Source of the DNA: Mycetohabitans endofungorum
GTDB lineage: Bacteria > Pseudomonadota > Gammaproteobacteria > Burkholderiales > Burkholderiaceae
DNA: 64,000 nucleotides
Reading direction: 5' to 3'
NCBI RefSeq assembly: GCF_037477895.1
Contig: NZ_CP132745.1
Coordinates: 124,001-188,000, forward strand
Shown: piece by piece, positions 41,102 through 64,000 of the stretch
How the letters are laid out: the number at the start of each line of letters is the position of its first letter
How positions within the stretch are numbered: the first letter of the stretch is position 1
Position numbers and translations under genes: made by a program
The notes under the pieces: model-generated
What the model was told of the DNA's origin: nothing
Seen by the model: the letters and a program-made list of their open reading frames with translations, nothing else
Database searches by the model: none

Positions 41102-41449
41102 CCCGGGGTGATGAAATTGGTAAACATAGCGGACTTAACAATTTGAGTGCACGGCTGGAAACGGTCGATGTAGAACCCTTCAAATTCGGCGAACCCCCTG
41201 GCGCATGAGCCGAGGCAACGCCGAGCCAAGCCCGTGGGGCCCGCTGGGGCCTTGCAGGAAGGTGTAGAGACTAGACGGAGGGCGCCTAATGCGCGATACC
41301 GCGGTAATATGAGCGGCACCGCGCGATGGCGAAGGCATAGTCCAGCGCACGAACGTCGGCCATCGCGAGGCCGGCGGCGCCGAAAGGCGTAGTGTGAAGA
41401 AAATCCGCCGCTTCACGGCTTGCCGGTTCGAGTCCGGTCCCCGGGACCA
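41102..41449 (+). tRNA. tRNA-Leu(UAA), interrupted by a group I intron
   Basis: Exon 1 (41102-41136) folds as acceptor CCCGGGG, D arm ATG...CAT, anticodon 5' stem GCGGA and loop CUU. Exon 2 (41400-41449) supplies AAAA, anticodon 3' stem TCCGC, the long class II variable arm, T arm GCCGG-TTCGAGT-CCGGT, acceptor CCCCGGG, discriminator A and encoded CCA. Joined, they give an 85-nt tRNA-Leu with anticodon UAA. The acceptor strands pair perfectly. The gap lies between U34 and A35, the classic site of the tRNA-Leu(UAA) group I intron. An integrase fragment follows, suggesting that the 3' end also serves as an integration site. Confidence 0.93.
41137..41399 (+). ncRNA. Group I self-splicing intron in the tRNA-Leu(UAA) anticodon loop
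   Basis: This 263-nt intron begins AACAATTTGAGTGC and ends with the terminal G of GTGTGAAG. Core elements appear in order: P (AAATTCGGCGAACCC, 41182), Q (GCCGAGCCAAGC, 41220), R (GGTGTAGAGACTAGACGG, 41261) and S (AAGGCATAGTCC, 41332). P7 pairs GACTA with TAGTC. The internal guide GAGT (41145-41148) pairs with exon ACTT, leaving the conserved U-G pair at the 5' splice site. The element set and insertion site resemble the IC3 introns of cyanobacterial tRNA-Leu. There is no open frame for a homing endonuclease. Confidence 0.92.
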
Positions 41450-42006: not shown

Positions 42007-43081
42007 CGATTCACGGACATCGTTTCACTTTTTAGAGGGCCGTTTTCGTGGCGTGTTGGAACTTGCATCGCCTATCGGAGCCACGAGTTCCAACACGCGC
42101 CGGTGATGTATAGCAAGGGCCTTGTCGATTCGCCATTCGCGGTGTTGGAGGCGCTCTTTCAGTTCATCGTAGGCACCAACTACCTCTTGCGCGAGAGGTG
42201 TCAGTTCGCCCAGTTCTGCGATGCGATCGACGGGCGTCTTGCCACCGAGTGATCCGTGCGGGCGGCGCCAGTTATAGTCGAACTGCCACTGTTCAATTTG
42301 CTCCTCGATCCCGCCTTCGGTCAGGCCATGACGTGACCAGCATTTGTTCAAGTCAGTGAGTTGCGAACGCTCGACCTTGCCATTGAGGTGTGGCGAGCGT
42401 GGTGGGATTGGTCGGAATTTGATGCACTCGCTCATCAGGCACCGCTGCACTGACTCGCTGCCCCGATCTGTCTGGATGCGTTGAATCGGAAACGGCGTTT
42501 CCTCGATGACGCGATCAAGAAAAAGCAACGTATTACGTGCATTTCTACGCGAATAGACGGCTAGTACGGGCAAGCGAGAACAATCGTCGCCGGCGGTGTA
42601 CTGATGACGCCCCGCGCAATCTTCATCGTGTCCATCTGGACGCAATCGCCCGGCACCGGACGGCTATAACGTTTGGGCTGCGCTGCTCGCCCGGGTCGAA
42701 TCAATGGCTTCACACGCGCCTGGCACAAGATCTTGTGAATGGTTGCGAGCGATAGTTCTCTTTGCTCGTGCAATCGCAACTCATTCTGGATCCGCCGCGC
42801 GCCTTTGTGCTCGGCACGCAGTCGGAGGATCGCTGCTCGATCGCTCTCAGAGACCTTCTGGTTTGGACTTCGGTGTGGACGGCGGCTTTGGGATGGCAGA
42901 CCTGCTTCGCCGGCTTCCTGATAGAGACGTAGCCATTTGCGAAGTGTCGGTCGGAAGATGCCACACCGAGCACACACGGGGCGGACGTTGCCGGCCTCAT
43001 GATACATGTACACCCAACGTAATCGCGTGGCGATCTCTCGATCCATTGCCTCATTTTAGTTGAAACGATGTCCATGAATCG
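42007..43081 (-). mobile_element. IS481-family insertion sequence
   Basis: 21-bp terminal inverted repeats bound the element: CGATTCACGGACATCGTTTCA in two parts at 42007-42027, and its complement with one mismatch at 43061-43081. The single transposase gene on the minus strand is frameshifted. I see no clear target-site duplication. Confidence 0.8.
42025..43046 (-). pseudogene. IS481-family transposase, frameshifted
   Basis: The first part (ATG 43046; MDREIATRLRWVYMYHEAGN, RPTLRKWLRLYQEAGEAGLP) is the HTH region, followed by VPGDCVQMDTMKI with the first catalytic Asp. The frame breaks near 42590. The second part resumes with QYTAGDDCSRLPVLAVYSRR, IQTDRGSESVQ (second Asp) and PPRSPHLNGKVERSQLTDLN (Glu). 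Termini and catalytic residues are otherwise complete, so the inactivation looks recent. Confidence 0.8.
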
Positions 43082-45160: not shown

Positions 45161-45244
45161 ATTGCTCACCTCCATGTATATAGAATAATTCAACTTGCTG
45201 TTAATTCAAAGTTACGAAAAATTTGGTAACTTTTTATTTGTAAT

Positions 45245-45394
45245 AGATGCCAGATGCCAGATGCCAGATGCCAGATGCCAGATGCAGATGCCAGATGCCA
45301 GATGCCAGATGCCAGATGCCAGATGCCAGATGCCAGATGCCAGATGCCAGATGCCAGATGCCAGATGCCAGATGCCAGATGCCAGATGCCAGAT
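45245..45394 (+). repeat. Heptanucleotide tandem repeat (AGATGCC), about 21 copies
   Basis: Uninterrupted AGATGCC units fill about 150 bp, with one unit shortened by a C (AGATGCAGATGCC near 45281-45293). It lies between the NRPS stop (45672) and the cupin start (45160), 84 bp before the latter. All frames of both strands are open through it, creating spurious ORFs. Copy number should vary by slipped-strand mispairing. Confidence 0.95.
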
Positions 45395-45671
45395 CTTAAG
45401 CCATCGCCAGACAATTTTTTCATCCGGCAGCTTGGGTACGTGCTGTATGTACAGTAATTCAGCCGCTGAGACAGCTCCGGCTGCCCTTTGTGCATTAATA
45501 ATGCTAATGTTCATTGCGACGTTCAATCAATTTAATTGATGAAATTGACTAGGAGAATAATTAAATTTAATCCGCTTGTGATGTGGCTGGCGAAATACAT
45601 CTCTTTCTGCTATTGACTTCTTCGGATCCATGCGTACCTCCTAATAATCTGTAGACTTCAAATGTAAATCA
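45395..45671. other. Spacer between NRPS stop and heptanucleotide tract
   Basis: AT-rich, without a recognisable gene or terminator. If the cupin gene is co-transcribed with the NRPS, the message must cross this stretch and the repeat. Confidence 0.4.

Positions 45672-64000
<18,329 letters not shown>

What the first reader, a model, noticed from the sequence alone, without database searches (positions are those of the whole stretch)
41102..41449. Group I intron inside tRNA-Leu(UAA) of a proteobacterium
Two halves of a class II tRNA-Leu are separated by 263 nt exactly between U34 and A35. The insert has P, Q, R and S elements in order, a guide sequence pairing with the 5' exon (U-G at the splice site) and a terminal G. 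This is the same site as the ancient cyanobacterial and plastid tRNA-Leu intron, whereas the beta-proteobacterial example I know best is in tRNA-Ile(CAU). It could be an old inheritance or lateral transfer. It is easily missed by annotation and produces spurious antisense ORFs.
Basis: partly seen in the sequence, partly recalled or inferred. Interest (0 to 1): 0.8.

Follow-up and report, generated by a model that had tools for sequence, protein, structure and literature searches.

The report
Self-splicing intron splits leucine tRNA gene
The gene for the leucine tRNA that reads the codon UUA in this fungus-associated bacterium is cut in two by a catalytic RNA intron that very probably has to splice itself out before the tRNA can work; the kind of intron is known, but close relatives of it also turn up in sequences catalogued as phages and on resistance plasmids.

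Summary
Confirmed. Window 41102-41449 (+) is a class II tRNA-Leu(UAA) gene interrupted by a 263-nt group I intron (41137-41399) exactly between U34 and A35, with P1 (U·G at the splice site), P10, P3-P8 including the P7 pseudoknot, and a terminal G. Rfam RF00028 matches at E 8.7e-7 but below its gathering score. In 29 related cores 11 of 28 pairs show two-sided changes. No intact tRNA-Leu(UAA) was found in the genome, so splicing is very probably needed. The gene lies on the second replicon of a Mycetohabitans-like genome. The only tRNA-Leu(CAA) gene found carries a related intron that must use a C-G splice site. Of 200 Burkholderiaceae genomes, 68 carry the window-type intron, 52 the uninterrupted gene, none both. 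The kind is known, so this is a new member. Single origin with, or transfer from, cyanobacterial introns is unresolved. Extras: the same intron family in tRNA genes of IMG/VR contigs, one with a T4-type capsid gene, and an intron-bearing tRNA-Leu gene on 1261 of 72,556 plasmids.

The parts
41102..41136 (+). 5' exon of tRNA-Leu(UAA), ends at U34
   Evidence: ARAGORN with introns; 100% identical (bases 2-37 of the query) to uninterrupted orthologs such as G010 and G159
41137..41399 (+). group I intron, 263 nt, last base G
   Evidence: model R1 137.4 bits (R1 was built with this sequence among 29)
41400..41449 (+). 3' exon of tRNA-Leu(UAA), begins at A35, CCA encoded
41133..41148 (+). P1: 41133-41136 (ACUU) with guide 41145-41148 (GAGU); U41136.G41145 at the 5' splice site
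41142..41402 (+). P10: 41142-41144 (UUU) with 41400-41402 (AAA)
41149..41171 (+). P2 hairpin with GAAA loop
   Evidence: ViennaRNA fold of the segment; not counted in the covariation test
41176..41282 (+). P3: 41176-41181 with 41277-41282
41185..41225 (+). P4: 41185-41190 with 41220-41225; P5 inside (41195-41202 with 41209-41215)
41226..41262 (+). P6 region (41226/41262, 41231/41258, 41232/41257); the next pair named is a mismatch here
41269..41342 (+). P7 pseudoknot: 41269-41273 (GACUA) with 41338-41342 (UAGUC), expected guanosine-binding helix
   Evidence: 3 of 5 pairs with two-sided changes, 100% of cells paired
41284..41330 (+). P8 base: 41284-41286 with 41328-41330
41346..41396 (+). P9 region with two hairpins, the second GAAA-capped (41377-41390)
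   Evidence: ViennaRNA fold of the segment; not counted in the covariation test

Best explanation
This is the only tRNA-Leu(UAA) gene found in the genome, interrupted by a group I ribozyme. After transcription the intron folds; a guanosine bound in P7 attacks after U34, which P1 holds by its U.G pair; the freed U34 end attacks after the intron's last G, with the 3' exon held by P10, giving a normal 85-nt tRNA that reads UUA. Shown here: exons, junction, conserved fold, no intact copy found, uninterrupted orthologs with exactly that join. Inferred: the chemistry, that it goes without protein help, and that the gene is essential. Within Burkholderiaceae the intron is inherited mostly within genera, with gain or loss in at least three of them; its deeper origin is open.
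For: RF00028 E 8.7e-7. Covariation over 29 cores, P7 included. P1, P10, terminal G. ARAGORN reads a proper tRNA-Leu(taa) across the intron. 48 tRNA matches over the cut-off in the own genome, leucine ones only GAG, UAG, CAG. UUA codons in use: 43, 3 and 8 in three window ORFs. Uninterrupted ortholog in 52 of 200 family genomes and window-type intron in 68, no genome with both. Introns kept, with paired changes, in AT-rich Candidatus Vallotia plasmids. Genus labels need 11 changes on the intron tree, least possible 10, shuffled mean 21.7.
Against: Rfam's gathering score is not reached. No RNA or splicing data. No sigma-70 consensus promoter found upstream. One weak tRNA match (L088, 30 bits, 74 nt) was not named by ARAGORN. 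The structure was drawn from the aligned sequences, which favours it over the slid controls. P2 and P9 rest on single-sequence folds.
Confidence: 0.95

Rival explanations
1. A pseudogene: the tRNA gene was killed by an inserted, decaying intron and another tRNA reads UUA.
For: Score under Rfam's cut-off; no consensus promoter found.
Against: No intact tRNA-Leu(UAA) found in a genome of 99.99% estimated completeness; conserved fold with paired changes; exons and intron kept in Mycetohabitans and Vallotia records and in 68 of 200 family genomes.
Confidence: 0.03
2. Deep origin A: the intron and the cyanobacterial tRNA-Leu(UAA) intron descend from one ancient insertion, inherited vertically with losses in most lineages.
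For: Same site and same tRNA; holding all 78 leucine rows of the set together is not rejected (p-AU 0.194); inside the family introns follow genus.
Against: Related introns also sit in Ser, Thr, Ile and Arg tRNAs; the free tree puts cyanobacterial, gammaproteobacterial and Burkholderiaceae introns in separate clades, supports 97, 97 and 88; holding the leucine rows together costs 34 log-likelihood units; 53 of 369 genomes of the class match, scattered.
Confidence: 0.3
3. Deep origin B: the Burkholderiaceae introns were acquired laterally from a mobile pool of tRNA introns (other tRNAs, phages, plasmids), and again gained or lost within the family.
For: Relatives in several tRNAs, on plasmids and in IMG/VR contigs. 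A tree of 103 rows joins the Burkholderiaceae introns, the plasmid gene, L127, L128, Ser(UGA) and five phage rows with support 97. Genera g10, g15 and g20 hold both states: 2 with and 19 without, 1 and 2, 12 and 9.
Against: Only 116 alignment columns; the viral loci were fetched with patterns modelled on Burkholderia cores, which biases them to similarity; most phage rows fall outside that clade; no single recent transfer was shown; no homing endonuclease gene fits in the 263-nt intron.
Confidence: 0.55

Closest known systems
[quoted passage not shown]
   Different: Own clade in the tree, support 97 for cyanobacteria plus one Tatlockia MAG; different P7 neighbourhood and loops. Common descent of the two is not settled.
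Gammaproteobacterial tRNA-Leu(UAA) introns (Beggiatoa, Thiomargarita: PMC4853749, passages; Vepritskiy et al. 2002, recalled)
   Same: Group I intron in tRNA-Leu(UAA) of a proteobacterium; annotators miss the tRNA.
   Different: Those papers' sequences were not compared here. The gammaproteobacterial-type leucine introns I fetched (15 rows) form a separate clade, support 97.
Betaproteobacterial tRNA-Ile(CAU) introns (Azoarcus, recalled; Acidovorax and Burkholderia, PMC8450103, passage)
   Same: Small group I intron in a proteobacterial anticodon loop.
   Different: Other tRNA. Model R1 finds only two significant introns in this genome, both in tRNA-Leu; the third match has E 1.5.
Alphaproteobacterial tRNA-Arg(CCU) introns (recalled)
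   Same: Group I intron in an anticodon loop; one such locus, L138, matches R1.
   Different: Other tRNA and position; place in the tree unsure.

Membership tests
Group I introns | P3/P7 pseudoknotted core with P4-P6 and P8 in order | tested here: met
   97.4% of cells paired, two-sided changes in P3, P5, P6, P7, P8; in the window one P6 pair is a mismatch
Group I introns | P1 guide pairing with the 5' exon, U.G (rarely C-G) at the cut | tested here: met
   Window: four pairs, U.G. Of 63 tRNA-Leu(UAA) searches have U with guide G; two have U but the script chose guide A; one is a senseless join. 10 of 10 tRNA-Leu(CAA) calls have C with guide G
Group I introns | Terminal guanosine and P10 with the 3' exon | tested here: met
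   Terminal G in 72 of 74 leucine calls, window included; three P10 pairs in the window
Group I introns | Guanosine-dependent self-splicing | not testable with these tools
   needs an in vitro assay
Rfam RF00028 Intron_gpI | Curated gathering score of 50 bits | tested here: not met
   34.5 bits, E 8.7e-7. I treat this as a library cut-off, not as a biological criterion. The own chromosomal CAA intron (L002) and the Cupriavidus locus L006 gave no RF00028 match at E 0.01; the plasmid gene L005 gave 36.8 bits
tRNA-Leu(UAA) U34|A35 intron family (cyanobacteria and plastids) | Insertion between U34 and A35 of tRNA-Leu(UAA) | tested here: met
tRNA-Leu(UAA) U34|A35 intron family (cyanobacteria and plastids) | Common descent with the cyanobacterial intron | tested here: inconclusive
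   p-AU 0.194, 0.433, 0.625 for three groupings
Subgroup IC3 (recalled as the class of Azoarcus and Anabaena tRNA introns) | IC3 subgroup profile | not tested
   no subgroup models at hand

The most novel reading that the evidence does not exclude
The window's intron belongs to a family of tRNA introns that travels on phage tRNA arrays and plasmid-borne tRNA genes and moves between anticodon loops. Because its splice-site base is the wobble base itself, a resident intron restricts base 34 to U or C, and a U-to-C change lets an intron-bearing tRNA-Leu switch from UAA to CAA while still splicing, through a C-G pair.
Probability: 0.35. Interest if true: 0.7.

Novelty: new member of a known kind. 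Interest (0 to 1): 0.45.

Why it matters
If read correctly, every cell of this lineage must run a ribozyme to read UUA and a second one to make its only tRNA-Leu(CAA), also in endosymbionts with genomes of about 1.1-1.2 Mb. Close relatives differ in having or lacking the intron at an unchanged site, so its cost, gain and loss can be studied directly. The ten C-G splice sites are natural tests of the U.G rule. If phages and plasmids carry working copies, they would be vehicles for tRNA introns; the 2014 review passage seen here says that the phage introns known then were all in protein-coding genes (PMC3984707).

Tried and rejected
Pseudogene reading: rejected, since no intact copy was found and the fold is conserved. 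Deep origin by trees and AU tests: three groupings tried, none rejected (p 0.194, 0.433, 0.625; for cyanobacteria plus gammaproteobacterial leucine introns the held tree was even better than the free quick tree), so I make no firm claim. Sigma-70 promoter scan: 0 found; one terminator-like site on the other strand against 0.6 expected. Synteny of empty and filled sites: of four empty-site loci, L117 shares 21-43 bases directly upstream with many filled loci, L119 shares 54-104 bases further upstream, L120 has one 69-base upstream match and short downstream ones, L116 nothing. Public annotation of the tRNA could not be judged from the plasmid collection, whose tables hold no RNA genes. Terminase_6N: 3 of 18 viral records, those of L287, L292 and L299, where the motif lies near a contig end. 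Gp23 capsid: 1 of 10. A call that gave nothing useful: three 100-base placeholder stretches, L115, L118, L121. The script printed its rows and then stopped on a parsing error at the last line.

Full report
What is there. Window 41102-41449 on the + strand holds the two halves of a class II tRNA-Leu with anticodon UAA and an encoded CCA, separated by 263 nt. ARAGORN without introns reports no tRNA in the window. With introns allowed it reports tRNA-Leu(taa), intron 263 nt, junction gactt|aaaat.

Is the insert a group I intron? Rfam at gathering thresholds lists nothing. With an E-value threshold on 1301 bases the one match is Intron_gpI, 34.5 bits against a gathering score of 50, E 8.7e-7, over the whole model. 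I aligned the cores of 29 introns, the window's among them (A1), and named a structure with P3, P4, P5, P6, P8 and the P7 pseudoknot. Of 812 cells 97.4% pair; 11 of 28 pairs show changes on both sides; the covariation score is 0.283 against 0.121 in shuffles; 0 of 500 shuffles reach these values. One measure, further pair types, was ordinary (472 of 500 as high). Sliding partners by one to three columns drops pairing to 32-49%. The structure was drawn from these sequences, which favours it over slid versions. P7 reads GACUA/UAGUC in one type and GAGCA/UGCUC in the other, with all cells paired. P1 (ACUU with GAGU, U.G at the cut), P10 (UUU with AAA) and the terminal G are there; P2 and P9, each with a GAAA-capped hairpin, come from single-sequence folds.

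Must it splice? The own genome has two contigs of 2.76 and 0.79 Mb and an estimated completeness of 99.99. It gives 49 matches to the tRNA family, 48 over the cut-off, all on the large contig. All 49 places were run through ARAGORN on fetched loci: 47 were named, the weakest over the cut-off (L088, 74 nt) and the one under it (L089) were not. The intact leucine tRNAs are GAG, UAG and CAG. A leucine D-arm pattern finds those three and the two intron-bearing genes exactly; four one-mismatch sites gave no tRNA. UUA codons are in use: 43 in the ORF at 45672-63980, 3 and 8 in two other ORFs. That UUA needs a tRNA with U34 is textbook knowledge. So the gene is very probably essential and spliced; that is inference, not a measurement.

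The second intron. The large contig carries a relative at C1:2186519-2186837, 69% identical, which ARAGORN reads as tRNA-Leu(CAA) with an intron of 235 nt. Rfam gave no match for it at E 0.01; its identity rests on the alignment and on model R1, which was built with it among the 29. Since its 3' exon begins at A35, the cut must follow C34. In one search, which made 74 leucine calls over the loci given to it, 60 of 63 tRNA-Leu(UAA) calls have U with guide G at the cut, two have U with a guide letter A chosen by the script, one is a senseless join; 10 of 10 tRNA-Leu(CAA) calls have C with guide G; one further call (cag) is a mis-join in another tRNA. I read 13 family genomes with this second intron type: nine have it in a CAA gene, four (L104, L107, L108, L109) in a UAA gene with very similar exons. 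That suggests anticodon changes under a resident intron, which is inference. R1 finds no third significant intron in the genome (best other E 1.5).

Distribution. The window gene matches 172 of 200 family genomes. Counting rows that span the intron, 68 genomes have the window type (G029 by two partial matches, G004 in a different tRNA backbone) and at least 20 the second type (G007, G046 and G060 by partial matches later read in full; the match list was cut off). I read 41 of the 68 and 13 of the 20. With an uninterrupted ortholog as query, 52 of 200 genomes have it at 89-100% identity over at least 83 of 85 bases; none has both this and the window-type intron. The other 80 genomes were not sorted. 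Genera g10, g15 and g20 are mixed: 2 with and 19 without, 1 and 2, 12 and 9. A tree of 40 window-type introns needs 11 changes of genus label, the least possible being 10, shuffled mean 21.7, as low in 0 of 200 shuffles: mostly inheritance within genera. g11 and g20 are not one group each on that tree.

Where the gene lies. The eight Mycetohabitans records that match in the plasmid collection hold it on replicons of 716-857 kb, and four Candidatus Vallotia records on plasmids of 61-72 kb. In the own genome it is on the 0.79 Mb contig, where the tRNA family search found no intact tRNA. If it is the sole UUA reader, such a replicon cannot be lost. The organism's name is inferred from these matches; the genome itself is given without a name.

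Wider relatives. R1 matches 53 of 369 genomes of the class at E 0.001, under stricter filters. I fetched 40 of the 61 match places listed. ARAGORN's readings include many tRNA-Leu(UAA), one Ser(UGA) (L125), Thr, Arg(CCU) and Arg(UCU), and by my reading of the exons Ile(CAU). Several of its names (Gln, His, Phe, Asp, Stop) come from ambiguous junctions and are not to be trusted. Of 100 loci given to R1, 100 matched; four partial or weak rows (L156, L213, L214, L226) were dropped and 96 rows of 134 columns made a tree. Cyanobacteria plus one Tatlockia MAG form a clade (97), 15 gammaproteobacterial-type leucine introns another (97), the Burkholderiaceae-type introns with the Ser(UGA) one another (88). 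AU tests on a quick tree reject none of three groupings. So old inheritance or transfer cannot be settled with these data.

Phages and plasmids. Of the 128 loci held, 58 have an ARAGORN call of tRNA-Leu(UAA) with an intron of 185-263 nt around the motif, 16 of these beside five or more intact tRNAs; 36 have no intron-bearing call, the rest other names (which extends from 91 to 128 loci). Some loci look like host DNA at prophage ends. For one, the 96.7-kb contig of L285 (22 intact tRNAs in the 13.9 kb read), a T4-type Gp23 capsid protein was found at E 1.8e-99, control 0 of 14 genomes; the other nine records tested gave none. Proteins near the arrays match phage families such as homing and HNH endonucleases. 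A tree of 103 rows and 116 columns joins the Burkholderiaceae-type introns, the plasmid gene, L127, L128, the Ser(UGA) intron and five phage rows (support 97), while most phage rows fall elsewhere. Separately, the intron-bearing tRNA gene of Klebsiella plasmid p6Inc is matched over at least 80% by 1261 of 72,556 plasmid records and by 624 of 5426 complete E. coli genomes. In the two records whose surroundings I read it lies near aac(3)-IId; in the RefSeq-annotated one no feature covers it, and R1 scores it 112.6 bits. ARAGORN labels its anticodon oddly; UAA is my reading of the exons.

What is in print. Passages seen: PMC8450103 (introns in tRNA-Ile2 of Acidovorax and Burkholderia), PMC4033280, PMC3984707 (phage introns then known all in protein-coding genes), PMC11835236, PMC2729099, PMC4853749 (interrupted tRNA-Leu-TAA and tRNA-Arg-TCT in Thiomargarita and Beggiatoa), PMC6125680. 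In the main texts of PMC7162821 and PMC10264068 the word intron does not occur. In the listed rows of ten library searches (some listings were cut at 20) I saw no paper on tRNA-Leu introns of Burkholderiaceae or on introns in phage tRNA genes. The library holds open-licence papers only, so this is weak evidence of absence. Vepritskiy et al. 2002, the Azoarcus work, the IC3 label and the chemistry of group I introns are recalled.

Verdict. The finding is real and correctly read. The kind is known; this is a new, well-supported member, with a second intron in the other tRNA that reads UUG as a bonus. The thread that could matter most, mobility on phages and plasmids, is only opened here.

Noticed in passing
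[quoted passage not shown]
   Followed up: yes
L005:5990-6290; L302:2501-2799: An intron-bearing tRNA-Leu gene beside aac(3)-IId in the two records read; matched over at least 80% on 1261 of 72,556 plasmids and in 624 of 5426 complete E. coli genomes; no feature annotated over it in the RefSeq record read.
   Followed up: partly
L285:6414-6711 and other loci: tRNA-Leu(UAA) genes with group I introns in IMG/VR contigs, 58 of 128 loci held, 16 of them beside five or more intact tRNAs; one contig has a T4-type capsid gene.
   Followed up: partly
L125, L136, L150, L129, L138, L151-L153: Related introns in other tRNAs of the class: Ser(UGA), Thr, Ile(CAU), Arg(CCU), Arg(UCU) by ARAGORN or by my reading of the exons.
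   Followed up: partly
L175:2590-2731: A MAG labelled Tatlockia carries an intron that falls inside the cyanobacterial clade; binning error or transfer, not decided.
   Followed up: no
G000:C2 and the Vallotia plasmids: The only UUA-reading tRNA gene found lies on the second replicon, where no intact tRNA was found; in Vallotia it sits on plasmids of 61-72 kb.
   Followed up: partly
window 45190-45539: Overlapping ORFs made of a repeated peptide (GIWHLAS and its antisense PDARCQM), so a short DNA repeat array beside a 6102-aa ORF that looks like a nonribosomal peptide synthetase.
   Followed up: no
window 42025-43046: Two overlapping minus-strand ORFs that look like a split transposase/integrase just downstream of the tRNA gene.
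   Followed up: no
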